From Sediminicoccus rosea (lineage in GTDB: Bacteria > Pseudomonadota > Alphaproteobacteria > Acetobacterales > Acetobacteraceae): 64,000 nt of DNA. Made by a program: the position numbers and the translations under genes. The notes beneath the pieces were generated by a model. That model saw nothing but the letters and a program-made list of their open reading frames with translations. It was not told the origin of the DNA and did no database searches. How positions within the stretch are numbered: position 1 is the first letter of the stretch; each line of letters begins with the position of its first letter. Location of the stretch: contig NZ_CP137852.1 of the NCBI RefSeq assembly GCF_033547095.1, forward strand, positions 1,791,501-1,855,500, in the 5' to 3' direction. Below are positions 1-12,926 of the stretch, one piece after another.

Positions 1-1
1 G

Positions 2-715
2 GCGAAAGGCGGCAGTGGCGCGGTCACCTACCGCGAGTTGAGTGAGGGCGAGCAGCAGCTCCTCCTCGTCCTTGGGCTGTTGAAATTCACAGCGCGCGAC
101 GACGCGCTGTTCCTTCTCGACGAACCGGACACTCACCTCAATCCCGTGTGGAGCACGCAATACCTGGATTTTCTGGACCGCTTCATTCGCACGCGGGAGC
201 GGGGCGAGAGCTGCCACATCGTCATGTCATCCCACGACCCTCTTGTCCTCGCGGGTCTGAAGCAAACAGAGGTGCGGATTCTCCGGCGCGATGCAACCGG
301 ACGGCCGATGGCTGAACCGCCGGTCAACGACCCGCGGGGGATGGGCATTCAGGCCATCTTGGCGAGCGATCTTTTCCGCTTGCCGGCGGCTGGACTGGAT
401 ACGGAAACCCAGCGCGAACTGGACACGCAAAGAGAGTTGGCCACGGATCCGAACCTCACGGCCGAGCAGCAGCAGGCTTTGCGCGACGTGACAGACCGTC
501 TCAACCGCAAGGGGTTTTGGCGAAGCGATCGCGATCCGCTCTACCAAATCTTCCTGCAAAAGTTTGTCCCCCGGTGGATGGAGCGAGCGAGGCCCGAATG
601 GCGCGAGGCGGTTCAGCTCACGCCTGAGCAGATGCATGAGCGAGATGCCCTCGCCGACGAGATTGCGGCCGAGATCGCAGAGGAGGTGGCGGCCGAGAGG
701 GCGGCCCGCGCATGA
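2..715 (+). CDS. ABC/AAA-type ATPase, PtuA-like (5' end outside window)
   Basis: This is the C-terminal part of an SMC/ABC-like ATPase; the reading frame is open to the left edge, so the start lies outside. Visible motifs are the ABC signature (LSEGEQQ, from base 38), Walker B (LFLLDEPDTHLNP) and the H-loop (MSSHDPL); the Walker A is not in the window. These are features of the AAA_21/OLD-like ATPases that pair with HNH nucleases in Septu and PtuAB-carrying retrons. The C-terminal ~100 residues are helical and charged. Its TGA overlaps the start of the HNH gene by 4 bp (ATGA), so the two are probably translationally coupled. Role inferred: NTP-hydrolysing sensor or scaffold of an anti-phage complex. 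Other DNA-repair-type AAA ATPases cannot be excluded without the N-terminus. Confidence 0.8.
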   Translation, partial: AKGGSGAVTYRELSEGEQQLLLVLGLLKFTARDDALFLLDEPDTHLNPVWSTQYLDFLDRFIRTRERGESCHIVMSSHDPLVLAGLKQTEVRILRRDATGRPMAEPPVNDPRGMGIQAILASDLFRLPAAGLDTETQRELDTQRELATDPNLTAEQQQALRDVTDRLNRKGFWRSDRDPLYQIFLQKFVPRWMERARPEWREAVQLTPEQMHERDALADEIAAEIAEEVAAERAARA

Positions 716-1599
716 GATACATCGATCTTGATCTACTGGTGGGCCGCACGGACGCGCAGCCGCTCATCGAAGCCGCCGAAGCCGCCCGCCACGCGATCTG
801 TGCCGCAAGCGACGCCTCGGCGCGCAAGGCCCTCATCAATGCCAATCGCGAGCGATGGGTCGCGTTCCGACCGGTTTTTCAAGCGGTGTTTGGCGAGAAG
901 TGCTGGTATACCGAGTCTCGCAATCCCGGCACCGATGACGATGTGGACCACTACCGACCGAAGGGTCGGATCGCCGAAAGGCCAGGGCACGGCGGCTACT
1001 GGTGGGAAGCGCTGCATTGGCGAAACTTCCGCCTGAGCTGCCATCGCGCCAATCGCTTGCGCGAGAACCCGGAAACCGGTGAGACGCACGGCAAGGGTGA
1101 CCGCTTTCCACTCATTGAGGAGCAGGACCGCTGGCGACGGCCTAGCGACGCGTGCCAAGAACGCCCGGCGCTCCTGGACCCGACCGACCCGTCCGATCCA
1201 CCGCTACTCACCTTCGAGATCGACGGGCGTGTGGCAGTCGCGCCGGCCCACGCGAGCGACGCGACGGCTGCGAAGCGGGTCGAAATCTCGCGGATCTACC
1301 TCCACCTCGACTGGCCAGCGTTCGTTACCGATCGGCGCGACCTGTACGCCACTGTGCTGCTGAAGGTGGGAGATGGTGACAAGGCCGATGCGGCGTTTCG
1401 GCGAGGCGAGGCAGGAGCTCGGGATACGCTGAAGGCAGTCGCGCGCGATCTCATCCGGATGGTCCATGACCGCGCCACCTACTCCCGGGCGGCGGTCGCC
1501 TATATCCACCGCTTTGGTGACCGCGATTGGGTCAGGCGCTACGTCCTGCCGCACATCCCGGCGGCTGCTCTGCCAGGCGTCCCGGTGGCCGCTCAATGA
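712..1599 (+). CDS. HNH endonuclease, PtuB/Septu-like (TIGR02646-type)
   Basis: A 295-residue protein with an HNH-fold nuclease core: Cys64 in KCWYTE, the catalytic-type DVDHYRPK around His80, WW at 97-98, WRNFRLSC at 103-110 and Asn114. This layout matches the PtuB family, the nuclease partner of PtuA in Septu and in Ec78-type retrons. The zinc-ligand pairs that are CxxC in many HNH proteins read CWYT and CHRA here, so the second Cys of each pair is absent. It starts inside the stop of the ATPase gene (ATGA), and its own stop overlaps the following methyltransferase start in the same way, which argues for one operon. Expected role: DNA or RNA cleavage on phage infection, gated by the ATPase. 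The function is inferred from family and neighbour. Confidence 0.8.
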   Translation: MRYIDLDLLVGRTDAQPLIEAAEAARHAICAASDASARKALINANRERWVAFRPVFQAVFGEKCWYTESRNPGTDDDVDHYRPKGRIAERPGHGGYWWEALHWRNFRLSCHRANRLRENPETGETHGKGDRFPLIEEQDRWRRPSDACQERPALLDPTDPSDPPLLTFEIDGRVAVAPAHASDATAAKRVEISRIYLHLDWPAFVTDRRDLYATVLLKVGDGDKADAAFRRGEAGARDTLKAVARDLIRMVHDRATYSRAAVAYIHRFGDRDWVRRYVLPHIPAAALPGVPVAAQ

Positions 1600-3185
1600 G
1601 TGGACATGACGCTGCCGCCTCTCTGGTTCGAAAGCTGTGGCAGTATTGCAATGTGCTGCGCGACGACGGCCTCTCCTACCCTGACTACGTCGAGCAGCTC
1701 ACCTACCTCCTGTTCCTCAAGATGTCGGATGAGCAGGGCTCGGAGGCGGTGCCGGCTGATTGCTCCTGGTCGTCGCTCGTCGGTCTCGACGCACCGGCAA
1801 TGCACCGTCACTACTCGGTGGCTTTATCCGCCCTCGGGAGCCGCGGCGGCATGCTCGGGCTCGTGTTTCGCAACGCCAGAAACAAGATTCGCGATCCAGC
1901 CAAATTACGCCTCCTCGTTCTGGACTTGATCGGCACAACGGAGTGGATGGGTCTATCCGCCGACCTTAAAGGCGATGCGTACGAGGGCCTACTAGAGAAG
2001 AACGCGCGGGACACAAAGAGTGGCGCCGGACAGTACTTCACCCCACGTCCCCTCACAGAAGCCGTCGTCGAGTGCATCGACCCGCGCCCCGGCGAGGTGG
2101 TCTGCGATCCGGCATGCGGGACCGCCGGCTTCCTGCTGGCGGCGCAACGGCACATCCAAGCCAGGAACCCCGGGCTGACGCGCGCCCAGAGGCGGCACTT
2201 GGCAACGCGGGCGTTGCGCGGCACTGAGCTGGTCGAGGAGGTCGCGCGCCTGGCCGCTATGAACCTGTTGCTGCACGGCATCTCGGGGGGCGCGGACGAC
2301 GAGTTGCCCATCGTGTGCGAGGACAGTCTGCACCGGCGACCGCAGACTAAGGCGGACGTCGTGCTGAGCAACCCACCGTTCGGAGTAAAGGGCAGCGTGA
2401 CGTACGCGAAGGATGGGCGAAGTACCGGCCGCGCGCTGGACGAGTTGACGATTGTGAGGCCCGATTTCTGGGTTCGTACCGCGAACAAGCAGCTGAACTT
2501 CCTCCAGCACATCTCCAGCCTGCTGAAGCCGGGGGGACGGGCTGCAGTGGTCGTGCCGGACAACGTGCTGTTCGAGGCCGGCGCCGCCGCCGCGGTGCGG
2601 CGTCGTCTGGTGGAGGAGCATGACGTCCACACGCTGCTCCGGCTGCCTACCGGCCTGTTCTACGCGCAGGGCGTGAAGGCGAATGTTCTATTTTTCGACA
2701 AACCAAAAGCTCGGTCAGGACCGTCCAAGCCTGACCTTTGGGTGTACGACCTCCGGTCGGCGAACCGCTTTACCTTGAAGACGAAGCCGTTGCAGCGCAG
2801 CGATCTCGCGGAATTCGTGCGCTTGTATAGGCCCGGTGACACCCAAGGGCGGGCCTCGGCTGACGCCGCGGGGAGCGACATCGGACGATGGCAACGGTTC
2901 AGCAGGGAGGCAATCCTCGCCCACGTCGATTGCCGTCTCGATCTGATGCCCGAAGTGGGCACAGACACCGGCGATCGGTCAGGCACGGACCGGATCGACG
3001 AGATCTCGCGCTTGATCGCAGAGGACCTCGCGCATGCTCTCCGTCACTTGGCCCTTGTGTCGCACAGCACGGTGGCCGTCAAGCGCGGCAAGCCGGATCA
3101 CCAAGGGCCAGATGCGGACGCGCAGGCAGGGACGAAGGCGCAGGCCTCGTCAGCTCGTGGACGCAGCCCCAGAGGGAAGGATTAG
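1596..3185 (+). CDS. hsdM: N6-adenine DNA methyltransferase, HsdM-like
   Basis: A 529-residue class I methyltransferase. An HsdM N-terminal helical domain (residues ~8-120) precedes the SAM motif DPACGTAGFL (171-180) and the catalytic NPPF (259-262). The GQYFTP motif (145-150) is the usual HsdM lead-in. The ATG at 1596 is preferred over an in-frame codon at 1527 because it gives an ATGA overlap with the HNH gene and begins directly with the conserved domain. Type I systems need HsdS for target recognition and HsdR for cleavage. Neither follows: the gene ends exactly where mobile-element debris begins on the other strand. It may be an orphan of a broken type I system, or the self-protection subunit of the ATPase-HNH module upstream. 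Confidence 0.88.
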   Translation: MSGHDAAASLVRKLWQYCNVLRDDGLSYPDYVEQLTYLLFLKMSDEQGSEAVPADCSWSSLVGLDAPAMHRHYSVALSALGSRGGMLGLVFRNARNKIRDPAKLRLLVLDLIGTTEWMGLSADLKGDAYEGLLEKNARDTKSGAGQYFTPRPLTEAVVECIDPRPGEVVCDPACGTAGFLLAAQRHIQARNPGLTRAQRRHLATRALRGTELVEEVARLAAMNLLLHGISGGADDELPIVCEDSLHRRPQTKADVVLSNPPFGVKGSVTYAKDGRSTGRALDELTIVRPDFWVRTANKQLNFLQHISSLLKPGGRAAVVVPDNVLFEAGAAAAVRRRLVEEHDVHTLLRLPTGLFYAQGVKANVLFFDKPKARSGPSKPDLWVYDLRSANRFTLKTKPLQRSDLAEFVRLYRPGDTQGRASADAAGSDIGRWQRFSREAILAHVDCRLDLMPEVGTDTGDRSGTDRIDEISRLIAEDLAHALRHLALVSHSTVAVKRGKPDHQGPDADAQAGTKAQASSARGRSPRGKD

Positions 3186-3521
3186 TTCGCGCGCGAGGCG
3201 AGCACCCGCCGCACTTGCGCCGGCGCCCAGCGGTGCCCTCCGCGCGGCGCGGGAATGCTACGCGCCATAAGGGCCTTGGCGACCTCGGCGAGCGTCGCGG
3301 CGCCGGCGCGCTTCGCCTACTCCACGTAGGGCAGCACCGCGGCGGTGCGGCGCATGGCGTTCTCCACCTGCGCCTTGTTGGCGCGCGCGGCGAGCACAGG
3401 GTCACGCGCGAAGAGGTGCGGGTTGCCGAGCCCAGCGCCACGCGCCTTCGCCACGGGGAGTGCCGCCTTCGTGTGCGCGCTGATCATCCACCTCCTCCTC
3501 GGCGACTGTGGCGAGGATGAT
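3182..3521 (-). pseudogene. Serine recombinase C-terminal remnant
   Basis: On the minus strand the sequence encodes the end of a resolvase/invertase-type serine recombinase. ILATVAEEE is followed, after a one-base frame change near 3488-3500, by MISAHTKAALPVAKARG (from 3487), the typical helix E region. A helix-turn-helix tail ending in PAPRGGHRWAPAQVRRVL follows. An in-frame TAG at 3317-3319 interrupts it, where relatives usually have Gln. The stop codon overlaps the hsdM stop tail to tail. The N-terminal catalytic domain with its serine is missing; IS66 sequence is joined in its place. It is non-functional. Confidence 0.7.
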
Positions 3522-3529
3522 GCCGCCGC

Positions 3530-4043
3530 CTGCCGCGGCGAGCGTCTTGTAGGCGCCGTAGCCATCGCATTGCAGGAGGCCGCGATAGCCGCGCAGCAAC
3601 TCCTTCGCGTGCTCGGCGCCACGGCCCGGCGCGGAATGGAACACCACCGCCGGCGGATCCGTGCCGCCCTAGGGACGGTCGTCGCGCGCGATCGCCCAGG
3701 CATAGCCCTTCTTCGTTCGGCCGCGGCCGGGGTCCAGTACCGGCATCGTGGTCTCGTCGGCGAACAGCCGCGCGGAGCCCAGCAGGATCTCCCGCATGCG
3801 GCGCACGACCGGCATGACTTCGTTCGCCGCCGTGCCGGTCCAGTCGGCCAACACCCCGCGGCCGATCTCGATCCCCTGGCGCGCCAGGATCTACGCCTGG
3901 CGATAGAGCGGCAGGTGGTCGGCGTAGCGCGAGACCAGCACATGCGCGACCGTCGCCTCGGTCGACACACCGCCCTCGATCAGGCGGGCTGGCGCTGACG
4001 CCTGCGGGCGGCGCTGCCAGCCAGGCGCCGAAACCTGACCGCC
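3530..4043 (-). pseudogene. IS66-family transposase (TnpC) fragment
   Basis: The minus strand reads as the middle of an IS66 transposase in one frame. It contains RLIEGGVSTEATVAHVLVSR, YADHLPLYRQ, LADWTGTAANEV, LFADETTMPVLDPGRGRTKK and LLQCDGYGAYKTL. The FADET aspartate and the CDGYGAY aspartate correspond to the DDE-type core. Two in-frame TAG codons interrupt it: 3891-3893, where relatives have Gln, and 3669-3671, where they have Trp. Each is one transition away from the expected codon. The N-terminal zinc/leucine-zipper region and the C-terminal third are absent, and no terminal inverted repeats could be recognised. The downstream end is fused to recombinase sequence. Dead element. Confidence 0.85.
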
Positions 4044-4272
4044 GCCGCCGTGGGATGCATCCAGGCCGAGCACGCGGCTAGCATCGCTCCCATCGCGGCG
4101 CGTCTCGCCACGGCACGCATGCAGGAGCGCACGCTCTCCGATCTCGTGAACCGGGCGTTCGGCCTCACACCCGCCGAGGAAGCGCTGATGTGGAAGGCCG
4201 CGCCGCCGCGCATGCCGATCCCAGCGCCGATGAGCCTCAGCGAGGAGGCCCCCAAACCCGAGAGGGCGCAGC
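4044..4272 (+). pseudogene. C-terminal stub of a large adenine-specific DNA methyltransferase (Eco57I/type ISP-like)
   Basis: The plus-strand frame contains RLATARMQERTLSDLVNRAF followed by GLTPAEEALMWKAAPPRMP. This resembles the end of Eco57I-class or BREX/ISP-type adenine methyltransferases, where a helical tail of the form LVNxAYGLTPEE...LMWxTAPPRMP is common. Everything upstream is replaced by the IS66 fragment. No in-frame stop occurs before the next gene's start, so the exact end is unclear. It looks like the surviving 3' end of a gene destroyed by the element, and shows that the locus once carried another modification or restriction enzyme. Confidence 0.5.
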
Positions 4273-4806
4273 ATGACGCCGGCGTCCCTGCGGGCCGTCC
4301 TCGCGGCTCTCTGGCGCGTCGCGTGGCAGGGCTCGATGCTGATTGGAGCCTCGGCGGGAGCCGTTGCCGCCGTGCTCTATATCGCGGACTTCGCCTTTCC
4401 GAGCCCGGGCGAGGGAGGAACGGCCCCGGCAGACTTCAATGTGGTCATCGGGCTCATTCTGACCGCCGTCACGGTGATCCTTGGGGCGTTGGCCTTGGTG
4501 CTGGCGGTAGCGGCGGTGGTGGGTTACGCGCAGATCAAGGCGGCCGTGGAGCGCACGACGGCAGAGGAAGCCCGGGAAATGACCAAGGCGGTCACTCCGG
4601 ACGGCGCCCGACCCGTGGCCGAGGCTATCGCAAGGGAGACAGCCGCGGCGGTTGCCTCTAGGGTCGCAGGTAACGTGGCCGAAGTGATCGCGGCCAGAAC
4701 CTTCGCCGCAGCCTCTGAGCGGGGCGTTGAACCTTCAAGCGATGGTGACGATCTCAAGAGCGCTGCCGTGGGAGGGGAGGGGGATGCGAAGCCAAGTTCA
4801 GACTGA
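4273..4806 (+). CDS. Small membrane protein of unknown function
   Basis: A 177-residue protein with two predicted transmembrane helices: residues ~15-40 (WQGSMLIGASAGAVAAVLYI) and ~55-85 (VVIGLILTAVTVILGALALV...). An alanine-rich helical cytoplasmic tail follows (AEAIARETAAAVASRVAGNV), likely amphipathic or coiled. No family is recognised. It sits between the methyltransferase stub and the ImmA/IrrE-type gene and overlaps the start of the latter by 23 bp, so the two are probably co-expressed. Two-helix membrane proteins next to peptidases or nucleases in islands are sometimes effectors or immunity proteins, but nothing here demonstrates that. Confidence 0.65.
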   Translation: MTPASLRAVLAALWRVAWQGSMLIGASAGAVAAVLYIADFAFPSPGEGGTAPADFNVVIGLILTAVTVILGALALVLAVAAVVGYAQIKAAVERTTAEEAREMTKAVTPDGARPVAEAIARETAAAVASRVAGNVAEVIAARTFAAASERGVEPSSDGDDLKSAAVGGEGDAKPSSD

Positions 4807-5272
4807 AGCCGCGGCGCTCCTTCCCATGGAGGTGATCCGCGATTTCGCGGATCGAGCGCCCGTGGACCTCGATGCGATGGCCCGTGCCCTCGGTGTGGAG
4901 GTGCGGCGCGACCAAAACCTGCCTGAGAACGTCTCAGGGAAGATCGAACGGCGCCGGGCTGGCGTCGTGGCGACGATCAATGCGTCCCACCTCGCCAACC
5001 GCCAGCGCTTCACCTTGGCGCACGAGTTGGCCCATCGCATCCTGCACAGCGACCTGATTGGCGACGGCATCACCGATGATGGGCTGTATCGCAGCAGCTT
5101 GTCCGACGACATTGAGCGCCAGGCGAATGCCTTCGCTGCCGAGCTGCTCATGCCGGCGCGATTGGTCCGGAAGCTCTACCGCGAGGGGATGAAAGACACG
5201 CCGAGCATCGCGGAGCGATTCGATGTCTCCTACGACGCGGCCAGGGTGCGGCTGCGCGAGCTTTTCGGGTAG
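4784..5272 (+). CDS. ImmA/IrrE-family metallopeptidase
   Basis: A 162-residue M78-type zinc peptidase with the HExxH motif HELAH at residues 80-84 and the downstream acidic helix ERQANAFAAELLMP, which supplies the third zinc ligand. The ATG at 4784 is chosen because it follows a purine-rich run (GGGAGGGGAGGGG); an in-frame codon at 4727 lacks this. ImmA-type proteases cleave phage-like repressors to trigger excision, and IrrE/PprI proteases cleave DdrO-type repressors in stress. No XRE repressor partner is fused or adjacent, which is unusual since many family members carry one. It is the last gene of the island before the tRNA. Confidence 0.88.
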   Translation: MRSQVQTEAAALLPMEVIRDFADRAPVDLDAMARALGVEVRRDQNLPENVSGKIERRRAGVVATINASHLANRQRFTLAHELAHRILHSDLIGDGITDDGLYRSSLSDDIERQANAFAAELLMPARLVRKLYREGMKDTPSIAERFDVSYDAARVRLRELFG

Positions 5273-5446
5273 GACGGGACCGATGATGGTCCGGGCTCCG
5301 GTCCAACCCATAGCCTTCCCCGTTCTCAAGCCACAGCACTGGGCGCTCCCAGGCGGAACCATCCCCCACTATTTCCAGCCAAGTGTGGGAACCATTGTGG
5401 GAACCTGGGGAACGCGGCCCCGAAACCCGCAGAAAACCTATGGTAA
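5273..5446. other. Island-tRNA junction, no gene seen
   Basis: This 174-bp stretch lies between the peptidase stop and the encoded CCA end of tRNA-Ser. Short near-repeats of GTGGGAACC occur at about 5384-5406. I find no convincing gene and no integrase. By position it is where an attachment-site duplication of the tRNA 3' end would be sought, but the partner copy would lie beyond the left edge. Confidence 0.4.
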
Positions 5447-5537
5447 TGGCGGATGAGGTGGGATTCGAACCCACGATAGGCTTTTGACCTATACGCACTT
5501 TCCAGGCGCGCGCCTTCGACCACTCGGCCACCCATCC
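5447..5537 (-). tRNA. tRNA-Ser: tRNA-Ser (anticodon GGA), CCA encoded
   Basis: The minus strand folds as a class II tRNA. The acceptor GGATGGG (5537-5531) pairs with the 3' strand ending ATCC, then a G discriminator at 5450 and an encoded CCA at 5449-5447. The anticodon loop CTGGAAA gives GGA, reading UCC/UCU serine codons. A long variable arm and a T-arm with GGTTCGAATCC are present. Its 3' end faces the defence island at lower coordinates, the usual orientation for a tRNA used as an integration site. Confidence 0.95.
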
Positions 5538-5582
5538 AGCGCGCCCCTCCTTAAGGCGGCTCGCGCCCGTGGGCAAGCGGGG

Positions 5583-5783
5583 TCAGAAATCGCTCACCCG
5601 GCCCTTGCGTTCCCAGTCATTGTAGCGCGTGGGTTCGGGGCCAGCGGGACCGCCTTCCTCGACCGCGGCGGGTGCCGCCGGGCGCGGCGGGCGGTTGATC
5701 GGCGTCAGCGGCGGCGCGCTGCGCGGCTTGCCCGCGGGCACGGCCACGGGAGAAGGTGAGGGGGTCTTTTCTTCATCGCTCAT
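5583..5783 (-). CDS. DUF1674 protein, succinate dehydrogenase assembly factor 4-like
   Basis: A 66-residue protein. A low-complexity Pro/Ala-rich N-terminal half is followed by the conserved DUF1674 C-terminus RYNDWERKGRVSDF. The family (Sdh8/SDHAF4) helps load flavinylated SdhA in mitochondria and is widespread in alphaproteobacteria, where its role is assumed to be similar. A longer reading frame exists upstream, but the ATG at 5783 gives the usual family length; the upstream frame is antisense to htpX. It is divergent from htpX, with about 36 bp between the two starts. Confidence 0.85.
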   Translation of the reverse strand: MSDEEKTPSPSPVAVPAGKPRSAPPLTPINRPPRPAAPAAVEEGGPAGPEPTRYNDWERKGRVSDF

Positions 5784-5819
5784 GATGCCGATGTGGGATG
5801 GCACAGGGATTCGCGAAAG

Positions 5820-6734
5820 ATGCTCAAGACCTTCATCCTCCTGGGCGCCCTCACGGCGCTCTTCATGGTGGTGGGCTACGCCCTCGGCGGCGAGGCGGGC
5901 GCCACCATGGCGCTGCTCATGGCCGGCGGCATGAACCTCTTCGCCTGGTGGGGCAGTGACCGCATGGTGCTGCGCATGCACAACGCCCAGCCCGTGACCG
6001 AGGCCGAGGCGCCGCAGCTCTACCGCATGACGGCCGATCTCGCCGCGCGCGCCGGCATGCCCATGCCCGCGCTCTACATCATCCATGAGGACCAGCCCAA
6101 CGCCTTCGCCACCGGCCGCAGCCCCGAACGCGGCGCCGTCGCGGTCAACACCGGCCTGCTCGACCTGATGAACCAGCAGGAGGTGGCCGGCGTGATCGCG
6201 CATGAGCTGGCCCACATCAAGAACCGCGACACGCTGATCATGGCGGTGACGGCCACACTCGCCGGCGCCATCGGCTTCCTCGCGCAGTTCGCCTTCATGA
6301 TGGGCCGCGGGCGGGAGAACCGGCCCAACCCCATCGCCATGATCCTGATGGTCATCCTCGCCCCCATGGCCGCGATGCTGGTGCAGATGGCCATCTCCCG
6401 CGCGCGGGAGTTCGAGGCGGATGCGGAAGGGGCACGCATCTGCGGTGATCCCTCCTGGCTCGCCAACGGCCTCGCCAAGCTCGAGCGCGGCAAGATCGGC
6501 CATGTGAACCAGACAGCCGAGGCCAATCCCGGCAGCGCCCACATGTTCATCATCAACCCGCTCTCCGGCCTGCGCATGGACCGCCTCTTCGCCACCCATC
6601 CGCCGACGCAGGAGCGCATCGCGCGGCTGATGGCACTGGGCGGCATGTCGCCCCCGCGCGGCGCGCCGGCGATGGCCGCCCCGCGCGGCGCCTCGCCCTG
6701 GTCGGCGCCGGCCAAGCGCAACCCTTGGGCATGA
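5820..6734 (+). CDS. htpX: Zinc metalloprotease HtpX
   Basis: A 304-residue M48 inner-membrane protease. Two N-terminal transmembrane helices (residues ~4-20 and ~28-45) precede the cytoplasmic zinc site HELAH (128-132), two further hydrophobic helices (~140-160 and ~175-195), and the third-ligand region ISRAREFEADAEGA. The C-terminus has the usual HPPTQERIARL. HtpX degrades misfolded membrane proteins alongside FtsH. The start at 5820 gives the standard beginning MLKTFILLGALTALFMVVGY; an in-frame ATG nine codons upstream is less conserved. A near-perfect palindrome (TGCCCGGGcCCCGGGCA, 6746-6762) follows the stop but has no U-tract. Confidence 0.95.
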   Translation: MLKTFILLGALTALFMVVGYALGGEAGATMALLMAGGMNLFAWWGSDRMVLRMHNAQPVTEAEAPQLYRMTADLAARAGMPMPALYIIHEDQPNAFATGRSPERGAVAVNTGLLDLMNQQEVAGVIAHELAHIKNRDTLIMAVTATLAGAIGFLAQFAFMMGRGRENRPNPIAMILMVILAPMAAMLVQMAISRAREFEADAEGARICGDPSWLANGLAKLERGKIGHVNQTAEANPGSAHMFIINPLSGLRMDRLFATHPPTQERIARLMALGGMSPPRGAPAMAAPRGASPWSAPAKRNPWA

Positions 6735-6856: not shown

Positions 6857-7945
6857 ATGTTCCGCAGGGGTTTGGCCGCGCTGCTCGGCGCCGGATTGAT
6901 CAGCAGCGCTGGCTGGGCGCAGACCGCGACCCCCGCCGTCCCGGCCCCTATTCCGCCGGGGCCGCGCATCGCCATCACGGCGGTGACGCAGCCGCTGCCG
7001 ACGCAGCCGCAATACATCCTCGTGGATCAGCGCCTGATCCGCGACGGCCTGCGCGAGCGCAGCGGCGGCCGCATCGAGGTGACGCTGGCGAGCCATGCGG
7101 AGCGCAACCTGGGCGGCGCCGAGATCGTGCGCCTGGTGCGCGCGGGCCAGGCCGAAATCGGCGCGGGCACGCTCTCCACCCTCTCGGGCGACGTGCCGAT
7201 CCTGGACGGCGTGGACCTTTCGGGCCTGGCGCCCGACATCGCGCTGGCGCGGCGCATCGCGGATGCGATGACGCCCGTCGCCAACCGTGACCTGGAGCGC
7301 TTCGGCACGCGCATCCTGGCCATGTATCCCTTCCCGGCGCAGGTGGTGTTCTGTCGCGCGCCCTTCACCTCGCTCGCCGATCTGCGCGGGCGGCGGGTGC
7401 GGACCTTCGGCAACAGCCTGGTGGATTTCTTCAACGCGGTGGGCGCGCAGCCCACCTCCATCGGCTTCCCCGAGGTCTATTCGGCGCTGGAGCGTGGTGT
7501 GGTGGATTGCGCCATCACCGGCACCGGCTCGGGCGTCGCGGCCCGCTGGCCCGAGGTTTCCACGCATATCAGCGACCTGCCGGTCGCCTGGGCCGTCGCC
7601 GCCTATATCGTGAACGTCGCCTGGTGGAACCGCCAGGATCCGGCCGTGCGCGCCCTGCTGGAGCAGACCTTCCGCGAGGTGGCGGATGCCCAATGGGCGC
7701 TCGGTGCCGCCGCCACGCGCGACGGCATTGATTGCGCCATCGGCAACCGCGAGGGCTGCCGCATCCACACGCTCGCGACGCGCCCGATGACCGAGGTGAA
7801 GGCCACCGACGCCGACCGCACCGAGACGCGCCGCATCTTCGAGCAGGTGGTGCTGCCCGGCTGGGTGCGCCGCTGCGGCGCACGCTGCGGCGAGATCTAC
7901 AACCAGACGGTCGCCCCGCTCACCGGCGTTCGGTTCGGCGGCTGA
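6857..7945 (+). CDS. TRAP transporter periplasmic binding protein (DctP-type)
   Basis: A 362-residue protein with an N-terminal signal peptide (MFRRGLAALLGAGLISSAGWAQ) and a DctP-fold body. The conserved core around DLRGRRVRTFGNS (residues ~175-190) contains the Arg region that holds the ligand carboxylate in this family. A good ribosome site (GGAGG, 9 nt upstream) supports the start. It delivers an organic acid to the DctQM permease encoded just downstream. The ligand cannot be read from sequence. It is the first gene of a likely operon that runs into the HyuAB and beta-oxidation-like genes. Confidence 0.9.
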   Translation: MFRRGLAALLGAGLISSAGWAQTATPAVPAPIPPGPRIAITAVTQPLPTQPQYILVDQRLIRDGLRERSGGRIEVTLASHAERNLGGAEIVRLVRAGQAEIGAGTLSTLSGDVPILDGVDLSGLAPDIALARRIADAMTPVANRDLERFGTRILAMYPFPAQVVFCRAPFTSLADLRGRRVRTFGNSLVDFFNAVGAQPTSIGFPEVYSALERGVVDCAITGTGSGVAARWPEVSTHISDLPVAWAVAAYIVNVAWWNRQDPAVRALLEQTFREVADAQWALGAAATRDGIDCAIGNREGCRIHTLATRPMTEVKATDADRTETRRIFEQVVLPGWVRRCGARCGEIYNQTVAPLTGVRFGG

Positions 7946-7947
7946 GC

Positions 7948-8541
7948 TTGCTGCGCGCGGCAAGCCTGCTGCGCCGCGGGGTCGCTGGCCTCGCGGCGCT
8001 GATGGCCTGGGCGGCGGGCTGGAACTACGTGGCCTGTGCCCTCTTCATCACGGGTGACATCATCGGGCGCAACGCCTTCGGCGTGTCCTCCGCCGCGACG
8101 GTCGAGGTCACGGGCTACATGCTGGCCTGCGGCATCGCCTGGGGCCTCGCGCATACGCTGGCCTGCCGCGCGCATATCCGGGTGGATGTGCTGCTGATGC
8201 GCCTGCCCATGCGGTGGCGCGCGCCGCTGCATGTCTTCTCCCTGCTGCTGCTGACGGTCTTCGCCGTCTTCGTCGCCTGGGCCGCCTGGGCGCTGGTGGA
8301 TGAAAGCGCGCTCTTCGACGCGCATGACAATTCCGCGCTGCGCGTGCCGCTGGTGATCCCGCAGGGCATCTGGGCCGTGGGGCTTTCCGCCTTCGTGCTC
8401 ATGTGCGCCGTCCTGCTGCTGGAATCCGCGCTGGCCCTGCTGCTGGGCGCGGGCGCGCGGCTGGATGGGCTGCTCGGCTCCCGCACCCTGGCCGATGAGA
8501 CGGAGGAAGCGCTGGAAGCGGTCGCGATGGCGCGCAAATGA
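7948..8541 (+). CDS. TRAP transporter small permease (DctQ-type)
   Basis: About 197 residues with four hydrophobic helices (around residues 15-40, 48-70, 90-112 and 130-155), the DctQ pattern. The reading frame extends far upstream inside dctP, but the homologous part begins at 7948, where a TTG lies two bases after the dctP stop (TGAGCTTG). A later ATG at about 8002 would remove part of the first helix. DctQ bridges the binding protein and the DctM channel. It overlaps dctM by 4 bp. Confidence 0.85.
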   Translation: MLRAASLLRRGVAGLAALMAWAAGWNYVACALFITGDIIGRNAFGVSSAATVEVTGYMLACGIAWGLAHTLACRAHIRVDVLLMRLPMRWRAPLHVFSLLLLTVFAVFVAWAAWALVDESALFDAHDNSALRVPLVIPQGIWAVGLSAFVLMCAVLLLESALALLLGAGARLDGLLGSRTLADETEEALEAVAMARK

Positions 8542-9902
8542 TCGCGATCGTCTTCCTGCTGGGCCTGCTCGGCGTTCTGGTCGTGGCGGCCGCCGCCGGC
8601 GCCCAGGCGCTGCCCATCGCCGAGATCCTGATGCTGATCGGCGTTTTCATCATCTTCTTCAGCTCGGGCGTCTATATCGCCGCCGTGCTGGGCGTGCTGG
8701 CCTTCCTGACCGGCTTCATGTTCAGCGACCGGCCCTGGTGGAATTTCGCGGGGCAGACGCTCTGGGGGCCATCGTCGAACTTCGTCCTCGTCGCCGTGCC
8801 GCTCTTCCTCCTCATGGGCGAGATCCTGCTGCGGGCGGGGCTGAGCGACCGTCTCTATCGCGCGCTGAACATCTGGCTGAACCGCCTGCCGGGCGGCCTG
8901 CTGCACACCAACATCGTGAGCTGCGCGGTGTTCAGCGCCATCAGCGGATCGAGCGTGGCGACGGCGGCCACCATGGGCTCGGTGGCGCTGCCCTATTTCC
9001 AGGGCACGGCCTACAACCAGCGCTGGGTGCTGGGCTCGCTGGCGGCCGGCGGCGCGCTCGGCAACCTCATCCCGCCCGGCATCACCTTCATCATCTACGG
9101 GCTGATCACCGAGACCTCGGTCGGCCAGCTCTACATCGCCGCACTCCTGCCCTCGATCCTGGTCACCGGCCTCTTCCTGCTGCTGATCGCGGCCCATGGG
9201 CTGCGCCACCCGATGGAGAAGCCGCCGCCGCTGCCGCTTGCCATGAAGCTGGCCGCGCTGCGCGACCTCGTGCCCACCATGCTGCTCATCTTCCTGGTGC
9301 TCGGCTCGATCTATGCCGGCTGGGCGACCCCGACGGAAGCCGCGGCACTCGGCGTCACGGGCGCGATGTTCTTCGCGGCGCTGGAGCGCAAGCTCTCCTT
9401 CCGGATGCTGCACGCCTCGGCCGAGGCCACGGCGCGCAACACCGCGCTGCTCGGCCTCATCATCTTCGGCGCCTATCTGCTGAACTACATCCTGACAACC
9501 ATCAACGTGCCCCAGGCGCTGGCCGGCCTGATCGCGGACCTGCCGCTGCCGCCCTGGGCCATCATGCTCTGCATCATCGGGCTCTATTTCGCGCTCGGCA
9601 CCTTCATGGAGGGCTTCTCCATGATCATCACCACGGTGCCCGTCGTCTTCCCGATCGTCGTCGCCCTTGGCTATGACCCGATCTGGTTCGGCGTGATCAT
9701 CACCATGCTGGTGGAGATCGCGCAGATCAGCCCGCCCGACGGAACCGTGATGTATGTGCTGCAGGGCATGCGCCGAAAACCGGGGCCGATCACCGACGTC
9801 TTCGTGGGCGTGATGCCCTTCCTGCTGGCCTATCTGGCGGCGGTCGGGCTCCTGCTGATATTCCCCGAGATCGCGCTCTGGTTGCCGCGAATCCTCTCCT
9901 GA
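8538..9902 (+). CDS. TRAP transporter large permease (DctM-type)
   Basis: A 454-residue integral membrane protein with about 12 hydrophobic segments and DctM hallmarks: the SGSSVATAATMGSVALPYF segment (residues ~136-155) and the ALGNLIPPG turn. The DctM subunit is a sodium-dependent, elevator-type secondary transporter that imports the substrate captured by the DctP protein. The start lies in an ATGA overlap with dctQ. The next gene is another binding protein of a different class, 17 bp after the stop. Confidence 0.95.
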   Translation: MIAIVFLLGLLGVLVVAAAAGAQALPIAEILMLIGVFIIFFSSGVYIAAVLGVLAFLTGFMFSDRPWWNFAGQTLWGPSSNFVLVAVPLFLLMGEILLRAGLSDRLYRALNIWLNRLPGGLLHTNIVSCAVFSAISGSSVATAATMGSVALPYFQGTAYNQRWVLGSLAAGGALGNLIPPGITFIIYGLITETSVGQLYIAALLPSILVTGLFLLLIAAHGLRHPMEKPPPLPLAMKLAALRDLVPTMLLIFLVLGSIYAGWATPTEAAALGVTGAMFFAALERKLSFRMLHASAEATARNTALLGLIIFGAYLLNYILTTINVPQALAGLIADLPLPPWAIMLCIIGLYFALGTFMEGFSMIITTVPVVFPIVVALGYDPIWFGVIITMLVEIAQISPPDGTVMYVLQGMRRKPGPITDVFVGVMPFLLAYLAAVGLLLIFPEIALWLPRILS

Positions 9903-9919
9903 CCCTTCGGAGCCTCTTC

Positions 9920-10891
9920 ATGTTCAGACGCATGCTTCTCCTCGCCGCCGCGCTTGTCGCGTCTCCCGTCCTGGCGTCCGCGCAGGCGCCGCAGCCGGGC
10001 TTCGAGCGGCCGATCCGCATCATCATCCCGATCGCGCCCGGCGGCGGCACGGATGTCTTCGCCCGCCTGCTGGCGGAGATCGTGGGCACCTCGCTCGGCC
10101 AGCCCATCGTGGCGGAGAACCGGCCCGGCGCCTCCTCCACCATCGGCACGCAGTTCGTGGCCGAGCAGCGGCCCGATGGCACCACGCTGCTGTTCACGGC
10201 GAATGCGCCCATCACCGCGGCCCCGCATGTGATGAATGTGCGCTACACGCTGGACCAGCTGGACCCGATGTTCATCGTGGGCCACACCGGCTTCACCCTC
10301 TGTGTCCGGCAGGACAGCCCGATCCAGAACGCGCAGCAGCTCATCGCCGCGATGCGCGCCGCGCCGGGCCGCTTCACCTACGGGACCGATGGCGTGGGCG
10401 GGAACATGCATCTCGCCGCCGAGCGCGTCTTCAAGGCGCTGGGCATCGAGGCGACGATGGTGCCCTTCCAGGGCGCGGCGCAGACGCTGACCGCCTTCTC
10501 CGGTGGCCATATCGACCTCTATGGCGGCTCCATCGCGGTCGCCATGCCGGCCATCCGTGATGGCCGTGCGCGCTGCCTGATCCTGACCCAGCGCGCCCAG
10601 CACCCGGAGGTGCCGACCGGCTCCGGCCTCGACGCGCTTGGCATCCCGAATGAGGAGACGCTGATCTGGTGGGGCATGCTGGCGCCGAAGGGCCTGCCGG
10701 CCGACCGCCGCGCCGCGCTGATGACGGCCTTCGAGGCCGCCTGGCGCACCGAGCGCTTCCAGACGCAGCTCGCCCGCTCCGGCGTGACCCCGCAGTTCCG
10801 GGACAGCGCCGCCTCGGCCCAGCTGATCAACGGGGAGAGCGAGGCGCTGGGCCGCGTCGCGCGCCAGGTCGGCATCGAGCGGCAGCGCTGA
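9920..10891 (+). CDS. Bug/TctC-family tripartite tricarboxylate-type binding protein
   Basis: A 323-residue periplasmic protein with a signal peptide (cleavage after ASAQ, residue ~22). The Bug-family PIRIIIPIAPGGGTDVFAR segment opens the mature domain, where the PGGGxD loop binds the carboxylate ligand. The family is hugely expanded in Burkholderiales and Roseomonas-type Acetobacteraceae. No TctA or TctB genes accompany it; the neighbours are a TRAP permease upstream and hyuA two bases downstream. It may feed a distant TctAB pair or act in ligand sensing. The ligand is probably related to the substrate degraded by the following enzymes. Confidence 0.9.
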   Translation: MFRRMLLLAAALVASPVLASAQAPQPGFERPIRIIIPIAPGGGTDVFARLLAEIVGTSLGQPIVAENRPGASSTIGTQFVAEQRPDGTTLLFTANAPITAAPHVMNVRYTLDQLDPMFIVGHTGFTLCVRQDSPIQNAQQLIAAMRAAPGRFTYGTDGVGGNMHLAAERVFKALGIEATMVPFQGAAQTLTAFSGGHIDLYGGSIAVAMPAIRDGRARCLILTQRAQHPEVPTGSGLDALGIPNEETLIWWGMLAPKGLPADRRAALMTAFEAAWRTERFQTQLARSGVTPQFRDSAASAQLINGESEALGRVARQVGIERQR

Positions 10892-10892
10892 G

Positions 10893-12926
10893 ATGGAGAC
10901 CCGCCCGGTTCGCATCGCCGTCGATATCGGCGGGACTTTCACCGACCTGCAGATCCTCGATGCGCGCCAGGGCCGGGTCGTCGCCTGGAAGACGCCCACC
11001 ACGCCGGCCGACCCCTCCGAGGGGCTGATGACCGGCGTGTGCGAGGCCGCGGAGCGCTTCGGCTTCGCGCTCTCCGATGTCGGCATGCTGCTGCATGGCA
11101 CGACCATCGCGACCAATGCCGTGCTCGAGCGCAAGCTCGCGCGCGGCGTGCTGCTGACCACGGCGGGCTTCGAGGATGTGCTGGAGATCACCCGCCATTT
11201 CCGGCGGGACGTGTACGGCCTCGCCCCCGACCCGCTGCCCTGCCTGATCGAGCGCGACATGCGCCTCGGCGTGGCCGAGCGGCTGCGGGCCGATGGCAGC
11301 GTGGAGACGCCGCTCGGCGATGTCTCCGCCGTCATCGCGCGGCTGAAGTCCTTGCAGCCCGAGGCCATCGCGATCGGCCTGCTGCACGCCTATGCCAATC
11401 CGGCGCATGAACTGGCGCTGCGCGATGCCGTGCGGGCCGCGCTGCCGGATGTGCCGGTCAGCCTCTCCAGCGAGATCAGCCCCGAGATCCGCGAGTATGA
11501 GCGGCTTTCCACCACGGTGCTGAACGCGCTGCTCATGCCCGTGGTGCAGCGCTACCTGGCACGGCTGGAGGCGCGGGTGGGGGAGGGCGGCTTCGCGCCG
11601 CGCATCTTCCTCGTGCAGTCCAATGGCGGCATGTGCAGCCTGAGGCGCGCGGCGGAACAGCCGGCGCGACTGCTGCTCTCCGGCCCCTCGGGCGGCGCGC
11701 TGGCGGCGGAGCGTCTCTCGCGTCGCCTCGCGCGCCCCAACCTCGTCGCCGTGGACATGGGCGGCACCAGCTTCGATGTGAGCGTGGTGCAGGATCACCG
11801 CATCGGCCTCGTCACCCAGGGCGAGGTGGACCGGCTGCCGGTGCGCCTGCCCATGGTGGAGATGCGGACCATCGGCGCGGGTGGCGGCTCCATCGCCGCC
11901 GTGGATGCCTCGGGCCGCCTCACCGCCGGGCCACGCTCGGCCGGTGCGCGGCCGGGCCCGGTCTGCTACGGGCGGGGCGGCACCCAGCCCACCGTGACCG
12001 ATGCCAATGCCGTGCTCGGCCGCTTCGACCCGGATTTCTTCCTGGGCGGCGCCATGGCGCTGGAGCTGGACGCGGCGCGCGCCGCCATGGCGCAGCATGT
12101 GGGCCAGCCGCTTGGCCTGCCGGTCGAGGAGGCGGCAGAGGGCGTGATGCGCGTCACCAACGTCAACCTCGCCGCCGCCGTGCGGCTTTCGCTGTTCGAG
12201 AAGGGGCTGGACCCGCGCGACTTCGCGCTGCTCTCCTTCGGCGGCGCGGGCGGGCTGCACGCCACGGAAGTGGCGGATGAGCTCGGCATCACCGAGGTGA
12301 TCTTCCCGCGCGAGCCGGGTACTCTCTCCGCCTATGGCATCCTGTTTTCCGACCTGGTGCAGGACCTCGCCCGCTCCCGCCTGCTGCCGGCGGAACCGGC
12401 GGCGCTGCCGGCCATCACCGCCGCCATCGCCGAACTCCGCGCCGAGGCGGTGGCGCGGCTGGATGCGGATGGCGTCCCGGAGGAGATGCGCGCCATCGAG
12501 GTCTCGGCCGACCTTCGCTATCACGGCCAGGCCTTCGAGCTGCTGGTCCCCTGGCCCGAGGCGCCGGACCTGCCTGCCTTGCTCACCCGCTTCCACGCCG
12601 AGCACCGCGCCCGCTTCTCCTACGCGGCCGAGGACGAGAAGGTGGAGATCGTGACGCTGCGCATGTCGGCCATTGGCCGCCTGCCCAAGCCGGCCGAGGC
12701 CGCGCCCACGCCGCCCGCCACGCGCACGCCCCCCGGCACGCGCCAGGTCTGGCAGCAGGGTGGCGCGGCCGCTTGGCCGGTCTGGCGGCGCGAGGCGCTG
12801 CACGGCGCCGATGTGATCGAAGGCCCGGCCATCGTGGAGGAGGCCTTCGCCACCCATGTCATCTCCGCCGGCTGGCGCGCGGGGCTGGACCCTGAAGGCG
12901 CCGTCATCGCGAGGAAAATCGCATGA
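10893..12926 (+). CDS. hyuA: Hydantoinase/oxoprolinase family, subunit A
   Basis: A 677-residue member of the HyuA/5-oxoprolinase/acetone-carboxylase family. The N-terminal ASKHA-like phosphate loop VDIGGTFTDLQ lies at residues ~10-20. A second nucleotide-binding element VAVDMGGTSFDVSVV lies around residues 284-300, with FGGAGGLHATEVA further on. The family hydrolyses ATP to open cyclic amides or to activate ketones for carboxylation. It ends with an ATGA overlap onto hyuB, so the subunits should be made together. The true substrate is unknown: hydantoins, oxoproline or a ketone are all possible. The downstream MaoC and dehydrogenase genes favour processing of a carbonyl or acyl substrate. 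Confidence 0.9.
   Translation: METRPVRIAVDIGGTFTDLQILDARQGRVVAWKTPTTPADPSEGLMTGVCEAAERFGFALSDVGMLLHGTTIATNAVLERKLARGVLLTTAGFEDVLEITRHFRRDVYGLAPDPLPCLIERDMRLGVAERLRADGSVETPLGDVSAVIARLKSLQPEAIAIGLLHAYANPAHELALRDAVRAALPDVPVSLSSEISPEIREYERLSTTVLNALLMPVVQRYLARLEARVGEGGFAPRIFLVQSNGGMCSLRRAAEQPARLLLSGPSGGALAAERLSRRLARPNLVAVDMGGTSFDVSVVQDHRIGLVTQGEVDRLPVRLPMVEMRTIGAGGGSIAAVDASGRLTAGPRSAGARPGPVCYGRGGTQPTVTDANAVLGRFDPDFFLGGAMALELDAARAAMAQHVGQPLGLPVEEAAEGVMRVTNVNLAAAVRLSLFEKGLDPRDFALLSFGGAGGLHATEVADELGITEVIFPREPGTLSAYGILFSDLVQDLARSRLLPAEPAALPAITAAIAELRAEAVARLDADGVPEEMRAIEVSADLRYHGQAFELLVPWPEAPDLPALLTRFHAEHRARFSYAAEDEKVEIVTLRMSAIGRLPKPAEAAPTPPATRTPPGTRQVWQQGGAAAWPVWRREALHGADVIEGPAIVEEAFATHVISAGWRAGLDPEGAVIARKIA

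What the first reader, a model, noticed from the sequence alone, without database searches (positions are those of the whole stretch)
2..3185. Overlapping ATPase - HNH nuclease - N6 methyltransferase module (candidate new defence type)
Seen: three genes joined by two ATGA overlaps, encoding an ABC-type ATPase, a PtuB-like HNH nuclease and an HsdM-like methyltransferase. Known: Septu is PtuA-PtuB, with no methyltransferase, and type I systems use HsdR, not an HNH protein. Inference: methylation could mark self DNA while the ATPase-HNH pair cuts foreign DNA, a restriction-modification variant of Septu. The alternative is chance juxtaposition of PtuAB and an hsdM fragment.
Basis: partly seen in the sequence, partly recalled or inferred. 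Interest (0 to 1): 0.8.

Follow-up and report, generated by a model that had tools for sequence, protein, structure and literature searches.

The report
Methyltransferase-gated Septu nuclease without HsdR
A DNA-marking enzyme of the type I restriction kind is welded, in one operon, to an ATPase-nuclease pair otherwise known from the Septu and retron anti-phage systems; the same set recurs in distant bacteria, often without the usual type I cutting subunit, so it looks like a real defence system that uses DNA marks to hold back or fire a different nuclease.

Summary
In the host genome the window's three genes are the tail of a five-gene overlapping operon: wHTH regulator, HsdS, PtuA-like ATPase, PtuB-like HNH protein, full-length HsdM. 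A scan with an HNH alignment kept 80 loci: 49 of the 51 with complete context have PtuAB together with HsdM and HsdS, and 24 of those 49 have no HsdR in reach. The window sits in a 13-locus lineage (Alpha-, Gammaproteobacteria, Actinomycetota) with no HsdR seen at the locus in any member (nine have complete context). HsdS carries an extra C-terminal, probably winged-helix, domain; in three cyanobacteria HsdS and PtuA are one polypeptide. Target-recognition regions of HsdS are swapped while ATPase and nuclease stay nearly constant. The modelled HNH protein matches chains of Septu and retron PtuAB complexes. Best reading: HsdMS is the self-marking sensor and PtuAB the effector, comparable to PrrC inside hsd loci or RT-msDNA on retron PtuAB. 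Whether PtuB cuts DNA or tRNA is unresolved. New variant of a known kind; a 2024 preprint on embedded defences could not be read.

The parts
1..715 (+). 3' part of the PtuA-like ABC ATPase gene (whole gene G000:C1:1790542-1792215, 557 aa)
   Evidence: PADLOC PtuA PDLC00293 E=1.2e-166; Pfam AAA_21 E=3e-22; LSEGEQQ, LFLLDEPDTHLNP and (upstream of the window) YYSGPSDRL shared by all six or nearly all six aligned relatives
712..1599 (+). PtuB-like HNH nuclease, 295 aa
   Evidence: PADLOC PtuB E=9.3e-67; no Pfam family; model pLDDT 94.3, its ten best PDB hits are chains of Septu and retron complexes; H80, N105, N114 invariant and D79 at least 90% conserved in 48 rows
1596..3185 (+). HsdM-like N6-adenine methyltransferase, 529 aa, full length
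   Evidence: N6_Mtase E=2.7e-64, HsdM_N E=9.9e-8; PADLOC MTase_I E=3.7e-162; motifs DPACGTAGF and NPPF

Best explanation
An HsdMS-PtuAB defence system. HsdS (two target-recognition domains) and HsdM make a type I modification enzyme that methylates the host's recognition sites. PtuA and PtuB form an ATPase-nuclease effector that is tethered to HsdMS, most likely through the extra C-terminal winged-helix-like domain of HsdS touching the SMC-like PtuA. Steps shown here by sequence: operon, conservation, extra HsdS domain, natural HsdS-PtuA fusion, target-region swapping, lineages with no HsdR at the locus. Steps inferred: methylation by this enzyme itself; HsdMS keeps PtuAB quiet while sites are methylated and unchallenged; unmethylated or disturbed HsdMS complexes (incoming phage DNA, or phage anti-restriction proteins) switch the ATPase and release PtuB, which cuts nucleic acid (DNA or tRNA) and stops the infection. 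In loci that keep HsdR, PtuAB would be a second line in the manner of PrrC; in the window's lineage it would be the only effector encoded at the locus.
For: 49 of 51 complete-context loci, found with an HNH alignment, have HsdM+HsdS+ATPase on the same strand within 7 kb; in an even sample of 398 genomes of the phylum the ATPase occurs in 3 (own included) and HsdS and HNH flank it in 3 of 3. HsdS C-terminal domain: strong hits (E<=4.3e-15) only in those 3 genomes, although HsdS-family genes occur in 189 of 398. HsdS-PtuA fusions in Nostoc, Leptolyngbya and Microcoleus. Target-region swapping with a constant effector, e.g. L063/L066: A 0.99, B 0.99, M 0.94, S 0.66; and L009/L066: A 0.96, B 0.92, M 0.89, S 0.41. 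Window clade of 13 rows, none with HsdR, on ATPase and HsdM trees (SH-aLRT 100 each). PtuB-like fold. PrrC170 is described as HsdR, HsdS, PrrC, HsdM, by that listing the same slot as here.
Against: No experiment exists. 25 of 51 complete-context loci keep HsdR, so PtuAB is not simply its substitute. This genome has two further type I loci with HsdR (C2 and C1:2.776 Mb), and 22 of 33 genomes with an HsdR-less locus have an HsdR-like match elsewhere, so help in trans is not excluded there. Two of 51 loci lack HsdM/HsdS (L068, L087). The seed rows of the scan were all HsdMS-linked, so the 49 of 51 holds for this subfamily, not for PtuAB at large. PtuB types are swapped between loci with similar ATPases (L009/L011: ATPase 0.82, HNH 0.34), so the nuclease is not strictly co-inherited. 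The winged-helix model of the HsdS domain is only moderately confident (pLDDT 71.9 overall, pTM 0.52; no PDB hit below E=0.001).
Confidence: 0.6

Rival explanations
1. Restriction by DNA cleavage: PtuAB replaces HsdR as the cutting arm; HsdMS recruits it to unmethylated sites and PtuB cuts that DNA.
For: Loci without HsdR form lineages; target-region swapping is what a methylation-read system should show; Septu PtuAB of E. coli ATCC25922 is reported to act on DNA (statement in PMC11555353, passages).
Against: The same PtuAB type also accompanies HsdR (L009 versus L054/L058: HNH 0.78 and 0.73 identical, HsdR present in the latter two), where a DNA-cutting arm already exists; two PtuAB pairs cut tRNA-Tyr. 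PtuA shows no helicase or translocase motor domain among its Pfam hits.
Confidence: 0.3
2. PrrC-like guard: PtuAB is a latent tRNase held inactive by HsdMS and released when phage anti-restriction proteins or foreign DNA disturb HsdMS; abortive infection.
For: PrrC is encoded inside hsd loci (HsdR, HsdS, PrrC, HsdM as listed) and is held inactive by its R-M enzyme (passages); Septu EcB88 and retron-Eco7 PtuAB cut tRNA-Tyr; 25 of 51 loci keep HsdR; the second contig of this genome has an AAA_13 protein in the same S-[ATPase]-M slot.
Against: In loci without HsdR there is no restriction activity at the locus to be inhibited, so the trigger must be HsdMS itself. PtuB here is only remotely related to solved PtuB chains (best profile match E=0.0015), so their substrate need not be shared.
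Confidence: 0.4
3. Unrelated neighbours: a Septu pair sitting by chance in a type I locus whose HsdR was lost, here perhaps through the IS66 remnant behind HsdM.
For: An IS66 remnant lies directly downstream of HsdM; defence genes cluster and defences embedded in other systems are known.
Against: 49 of 51 linkage in many phyla (by record titles), HsdS-PtuA fusion, an HsdS domain that goes with the ATPase, and no HsdR seen at the locus in any of the 13 members of the window's lineage.
Confidence: 0.05
4. HsdMS serves mainly as an epigenetic or regulatory methyltransferase and PtuAB works alone as ordinary Septu; the operon only co-regulates them.
For: Shared operon with a wHTH regulator; orphan methyltransferases are common (review passages).
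Against: Fusion of HsdS to PtuA and an HsdS domain that goes with the ATPase argue for physical coupling.
Confidence: 0.15

Closest known systems
Septu type I (PtuA-PtuB)
   Same: Same ATPase and HNH families, similar nuclease fold; HNH D-H and N residues kept.
   Different: Septu as described is a two-gene system; here PtuAB lies with HsdM and HsdS in 49 of 51 complete-context loci, PtuB is larger (295 aa against 205-250 residues for the ten matched chains) and below the NCBIfam TIGR02646 cut-off (28.7 against 52.15 bits).
Type I restriction-modification (HsdRMS)
   Same: HsdM and two-domain HsdS; target-region swapping in relatives.
   Different: No HsdR at the window's locus; PtuAB added; HsdS has an extra C-terminal domain.
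EcoprrI/PrrC and PrrC170 loci
   Same: An ABC-ATPase-driven nuclease encoded inside an hsd locus (HsdR, HsdS, PrrC, HsdM as listed in the methods of PMC11555353, passage).
   Different: PrrC is one protein with a HEPN nuclease domain (PMC3710099 passages); here two proteins, ATPase plus HNH.
Retron type I-A (Ec78/Eco7)
   Same: PtuA and PtuB effector pair attached to a separate regulatory module (titles, passages).
   Different: The module there is reverse transcriptase with msDNA; here HsdMS. No RT among the operon's proteins.
MADS (methylation-associated defence system)
   Same: HsdM-like MAD2, AAA ATPase MAD3 and HsdS-like MAD5 models give sub-threshold matches.
   Different: All far below the cut-offs (103.6 of 720, 34.1 of 420, 44.4 of 400 bits); the other mad genes were not searched for.

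Membership tests
Septu type I | PtuA-family ABC ATPase | tested here: met
   PDLC00293 over residues 1-549, E=1.2e-166
Septu type I | PtuB-family HNH nuclease with D-H and N residues | tested here: met
   PDLC00330 E=9.3e-67; H80, N105, N114 invariant in 48 rows; fold match to Septu and retron complexes
Septu type I | stand-alone two-gene unit | tested here: not met
   inside an overlapping HsdS-A-B-HsdM operon; 49 of 51 relatives likewise lie with HsdM and HsdS
Type I restriction-modification | HsdM with motifs I and IV | tested here: met
Type I restriction-modification | HsdS with two target-recognition domains | tested here: met
   Methylase_S, two stretches, E=8.3e-12; Specificity_I E=7.8e-82
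Type I restriction-modification | HsdR encoded at the locus | tested here: not met
   none in the 19 kb of L005; none seen at the locus in the 13 members of the lineage, nine of them with complete context
Type I restriction-modification | ATP-driven DNA translocation and cleavage | not testable with these tools
   needs biochemistry
PrrC-containing type I locus | ATPase-nuclease encoded in the hsd operon between hsdS and hsdM | tested here: met
   order S-A-B-M here; PrrC170 gene list
PrrC-containing type I locus | HEPN anticodon-nuclease domain | tested here: not met
   no such domain among the Pfam hits of the five proteins; nuclease is HNH
Retron type I-A | reverse transcriptase and msDNA beside PtuAB | tested here: not met
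   no RT among the five operon proteins
MADS | NCBIfam MAD2/MAD3/MAD5 models above cut-off | tested here: not met

The most novel reading that the evidence does not exclude
A widespread HsdR-less type I-like immune system in which the methylation state read by HsdMS directly gates a Septu nuclease through a dedicated HsdS adaptor domain (in cyanobacteria through covalent fusion): PtuAB would be a plug-in effector that evolution has attached to at least three control modules (alone, RT-msDNA, HsdMS), with the ATPase as constant hub between exchangeable specificity, methyltransferase and nuclease parts.
Probability: 0.5. Interest if true: 0.78.

Novelty: new variant of a known kind. Interest (0 to 1): 0.62.

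Why it matters
It would show that the type I modification enzyme can act as a methylation sensor for a nuclease other than HsdR, join PrrC, retrons and Septu under one logic (one ABC-ATPase nuclease effector, exchangeable sensors), and explain loci that annotation software would split into 'Septu' plus an 'incomplete type I R-M'. The HsdS adaptor domain and the natural HsdS-PtuA fusion make the sensor-effector contact directly testable.

Tried and rejected
HsdR absence genome-wide: my first profile (A4, built from HsdRs of relatives) found no match at E<=1e-10 in 20 of 40 genomes or records, but at E<=0.001 it also missed a genuine HsdR in the host's own genome (C1:2.776 Mb). I therefore repeated the search with HSDR_N and T1R_D3 and claim only what all three support: 11 of the 33 genomes searched by all three (plasmid records and own genome apart) have no hit, four of them among the 11 window-clade genomes; several are incomplete MAGs. 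T1R_D3 itself missed the HsdRs of two of the three HsdR-bearing genomes added as a check. I did not map the HsdR hits of the other genomes to contigs of my loci.

A round-2 HsdS profile was contaminated by the fused HsdS-ATPase proteins and labelled ATPases as HsdS; rebuilt without fusions, whose counts I use.

That the label 'HsdR present' follows the HsdM tree better than the ATPase tree is not supported: 10 against 12 changes on the same 70 loci, both far below 200 shuffles (minimum 17 and 18).

The upstream open frame (L005 7560-7891) looked to me, from memory, like a broken toxin gene of a toxin-antitoxin pair; its two pieces, searched apart, match no Pfam family (a first attempt used the wrong frame for one piece). 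Not claimed.

Weak hits to the HsdS C-terminal domain (31 of the 34 genomes, E from 4.6e-6 to 9.1e-4) are probably background: I scanned one (L135), which is an HU protein; four others sit in 393-473 aa frames that match none of my HsdS, ATPase, HNH, HsdM or HsdR profiles; the rest were not scanned.

In one search the five 'HsdS without PtuAB' include two (L013, L022) that do have a distant ATPase next to HsdS but no HNH gene found, so they are imperfect negatives.

The single-sequence viral-contig scan with the HNH protein found nothing. In the class sample of 385 genomes one further HNH relative besides the own genome appeared (G091, L007); its 3.6 kb stretch shows HNH and ATPase but ends before any HsdS could be seen.
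Full report
What is there. The window is G000:C1:1791501-1855500. I fetched 19 kb around its start (L005; window position = L005 position minus 11000). The operon, with L005 coordinates: wHTH regulator 7897-8310 (HVO_A0114, Pfam E=9.6e-20), HsdS 8307-10052, PtuA-like ATPase 10042-11715, PtuB-like HNH 11712-12599, HsdM 12596-14185. Every junction overlaps: GTGA, an 11-base overlap, ATGA, ATGA.

Identity. PADLOC models: Specificity_I E=7.8e-82, PtuA E=1.2e-166, PtuB E=9.3e-67, MTase_I E=3.7e-162. Pfam: Methylase_S in two stretches, AAA_21, N6_Mtase; nothing for the HNH protein. NCBIfam places the ATPase nearest to TIGR04435 'restriction system-associated AAA family ATPase' (98.3 bits, cut-off 300) ahead of retron PtuA (50.4, cut-off 500), and the HNH protein below the TIGR02646 cut-off. 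So the pair is of the Septu/retron kind but a distinct subfamily. The HNH protein, modelled from 48 rows, has mean pLDDT 94.3. Its ten best PDB matches are chains of Septu (8eea) and retron complexes, by their lengths and titles the HNH chains; only the first has E below 0.001, and TM-scores on the query are 0.40-0.50, this protein being larger. Over the collected set, Walker A, Walker B and SEGE patterns are present in 83, 84 and 82 of 86 ATPases, the KCWY-like and DH-PK-like HNH patterns in 86 and 83 of 91, and the [ND]PP[FYW] motif in 81 of 81 HsdM; my motif I pattern fits only 42 of 81, the window's HsdM among them.

Is it chance? In plasmids, the five records whose match covers at least 80% of the ATPase all have a restriction S subunit and an HsdM gene beside it: Roseomonas, Pantoea, Pseudoalteromonas (two), Vibrio. 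I used the HNH proteins of these five and of the window as an alignment to scan one genome for each of 84,980 species; 149 relatives were confirmed and the tool kept the best 80. As the seed rows were all HsdMS-linked, the result describes this subfamily. By profile searches on open frames, 51 of the 80 have full context (at least 9 kb left and 5 kb right of the HNH gene); 49 of these 51 have HsdM (within 7 kb), HsdS (6 kb) and ATPase (4 kb) on the same strand; 25 of 51 have HsdR within 11 kb, 24 have HsdM+HsdS but no HsdR, two have no HsdM/HsdS (L068, L087). The other 29 loci run into contig ends and were not counted. In an independent even sample of 398 genomes of the phylum, the ATPase (E<=1e-40) occurs in three (own included) and in all three HsdS and the HNH gene flank it. 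In one of them (L163) the ATPase frame is split; HsdM lies outside the short stretch held for the two non-own cases. In a class sample of 385 genomes the HNH protein hit the own genome and one other, whose stretch is too short to judge.

Two chassis, with and without HsdR. Orders among the 49 are mostly (R)-M-S-A-B and (R)-S-A-B-M. On an ATPase tree of 85 rows the window falls in a clade of 13 (SH-aLRT 100), all S-A-B-M, with no HsdR seen at the locus in any; by record titles it spans Alpha- and Gammaproteobacteria, Paractinoplanes, Conexibacter and Amycolatopsis. Nine of the 13 (own, L008, and seven of the 80) have complete context; L043-L045 have under 9 kb on the left and L041 only 2 kb on the right. 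The HsdM tree gives the same 13 (SH-aLRT 100) and a second, 12-row group with no HsdR in M-S-A-B order (SH-aLRT 100; L086 partial). On 70 loci common to both trees the label changes 12 (ATPase) and 10 (HsdM) times against a minimum of 18 and 17 in 200 shuffles, so presence of HsdR is clustered but has changed often. These are quick trees with several long branches and flagged composition bias. The HsdR profile and two divergent HsdRs of the host genome gave no hit in any of the 51 loci called HsdR-less (46 of the 80, own, four plasmid loci). Genome-wide, by three HsdR profiles together, 11 of 33 genomes with an HsdR-less locus have no match; the other 22 have a match to at least one, from full HsdR to weak helicase-like. 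The four plasmid records have none, but their chromosomes were not searched. The host genome itself has two other type I loci with HsdR.

Physical coupling. Three cyanobacterial loci encode HsdS and PtuA as one open frame of 1079, 1126 and 1092 residues, with HsdS at residues 2-527 / 8-567 / 5-519 and ATPase from about 531 / 575 / 544. HsdS of these loci has an extra C-terminal segment ('L..AGkpL..qeL...AGY....iE.FyL.LR'). A profile of the last 105 residues, trained on 40 loci, finds 37 of 39 held-out HsdS and none of five HsdS from loci without PtuB (two of which have a distant ATPase); that stretch includes some generic HsdS sequence. The narrower 82-position profile gives strong hits (E<=4.3e-15) in exactly the three genomes with the ATPase, out of 398, while HsdS-family genes occur in 189 of 398; 31 further genomes give weak hits, the one I scanned being an HU protein. 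The domain is modelled as helix-helix-helix-strand-strand, a winged-helix topology, with moderate confidence (block pLDDT 76-88 over residues 31-80, lower at both ends). Its best PDB matches are largely winged-helix proteins without significant E-values; one (4i99, rank 25, E=0.12) is the kleisin winged helix bound to an SMC ATPase head, a suggestive but weak parallel for docking on SMC-like PtuA.

What is selected. In close relatives the effector is nearly constant while HsdS target regions are replaced: L063/L066 have ATPase 0.99, HNH 0.99, HsdM 0.94 (L063 HsdM is cut by the contig end), HsdS 0.66, with 0.94-0.98 identity in the first target region, 0.18-0.24 in the second and 0.64-0.74 towards the C-terminus; L009/L066 have ATPase 0.96 but only 0.18-0.32 and 0.16-0.30 in the two target regions, with 0.74 in the centre and 0.64-0.72 at the C-terminus (50-column windows; region borders are my reading). 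L066 and L009 have no HsdR in reach (L009: whole record); L063 has only 4.5 kb to its left. Swapping of recognition domains is the mark of systems in which methylation state decides a response; it is hard to explain if HsdMS were an idle neighbour. PtuB types and HsdM types are also exchanged between loci with similar ATPases, making the ATPase the constant hub. Distances of ATPase against HsdM, HsdS and HNH correlate (Spearman 0.54, 0.56, 0.56; 500 permutations at most 0.19; 76 loci), which also reflects general relatedness.

Mechanism. PrrC, a nuclease with an ABC ATPase, is encoded inside hsd loci (HsdR, HsdS, PrrC, HsdM as listed for PrrC170; methods passage of PMC11555353), is held inactive by its R-M enzyme and is released when phage anti-restriction acts (passages of PMC3710099 and PMC12707154). 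PtuAB of retron-Eco7 and of Septu EcB88 cut tRNA-Tyr, whereas Septu of E. coli ATCC25922 was reported to act on DNA (passages of PMC11555353 and PMC13096335). I therefore commit to HsdMS as sensor and self-marker and PtuAB as its effector (my odds: coupling about 0.9, gating by HsdMS about 0.6), with tRNA cleavage slightly favoured over DNA cleavage because the same PtuAB type also occurs where HsdR already supplies DNA cutting (L009 against L054/L058). In loci without HsdR the trigger must be HsdMS at an unmethylated or blocked site, not loss of restriction.

Known or new. Embedding of defence genes in type I loci is established (DarTG2 and general remarks in PMC12255303, passages; PrrC), and association of Septu with Hma is on record (PMC8565338, passages). 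A 2024 preprint on embedded defences is cited there and could not be read; it may list Septu within type I loci. In the listings of nine searches of the paper library I saw no paper that describes HsdMS-PtuAB without HsdR; the HsdS domain and the HsdS-PtuA fusions were not searched for by name. I file it as a new variant: a Septu effector on a type I modification enzyme. It fails a defining feature of Septu (stand-alone pair) and of type I R-M (HsdR), so it is a member of neither in the strict sense, while its layout is that of PrrC-type loci.

Noticed in passing
G000:C2 (L129: 15772-16869, then 2-2044, 2031-3248, 3248-4453, 4393-6069): A 16.9 kb contig of the same genome carries a second type I locus, HsdR (running off the contig end) - HsdS - AAA_13 protein (PF13166, E=4.8e-11) - HsdM: again an ATPase gene in the slot between hsdS and hsdM.
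   Followed up: partly
G000:C1:2776000-2784472 (L130): A third type I-like locus with HsdR (HSDR_N, SWI2_SNF2, T1R_D3), HsdS-like and N6_Mtase proteins, including a 672 aa frame that matches both N6_Mtase and Methylase_S.
   Followed up: partly
window 3405-4274, minus strand: Degraded IS66 transposase pieces (PF03050 in three separate frames) directly behind HsdM.
   Followed up: yes
L005 7897-8310 and L008 7820-8245: HVO_A0114/MarR-like wHTH gene overlapping the start of hsdS, kept in the Roseomonas haemaphysalidis plasmid; probably the operon's regulator.
   Followed up: partly
L039 5995-6629: A Phd/YefM antitoxin and PIN-domain pair lies at the start of hsdS in Neorhizobium; a Fic protein (L011) and an FRG-domain protein (L010) lie upstream elsewhere.
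   Followed up: no
L013 4325-9707; L022 6341-11695: HsdM-HsdS-ATPase loci with a distant relative of the ATPase (107 and 119 bits) and no HNH gene found: possibly a further effector swap on the same plan.
   Followed up: no
L091 3080-4915: In Acinetobacter nosocomialis the M-S-A-B cassette sits just downstream of a gene that reads like glmS (recalled from its start, not tested), the attachment site of Tn7-like elements.
   Followed up: no
L015-L020: Contigs of the IMG/VR viral collection carry (R)-S-A-B-M or (R)-M-S-A-B cassettes, so the system may travel on viruses or satellites (or these contigs are host DNA).
   Followed up: no
L068, L087: The two complete-context loci without HsdM/HsdS: Tengunoibacter (ATPase-HNH only) and a Verrucomicrobia MAG (HNH only).
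   Followed up: no
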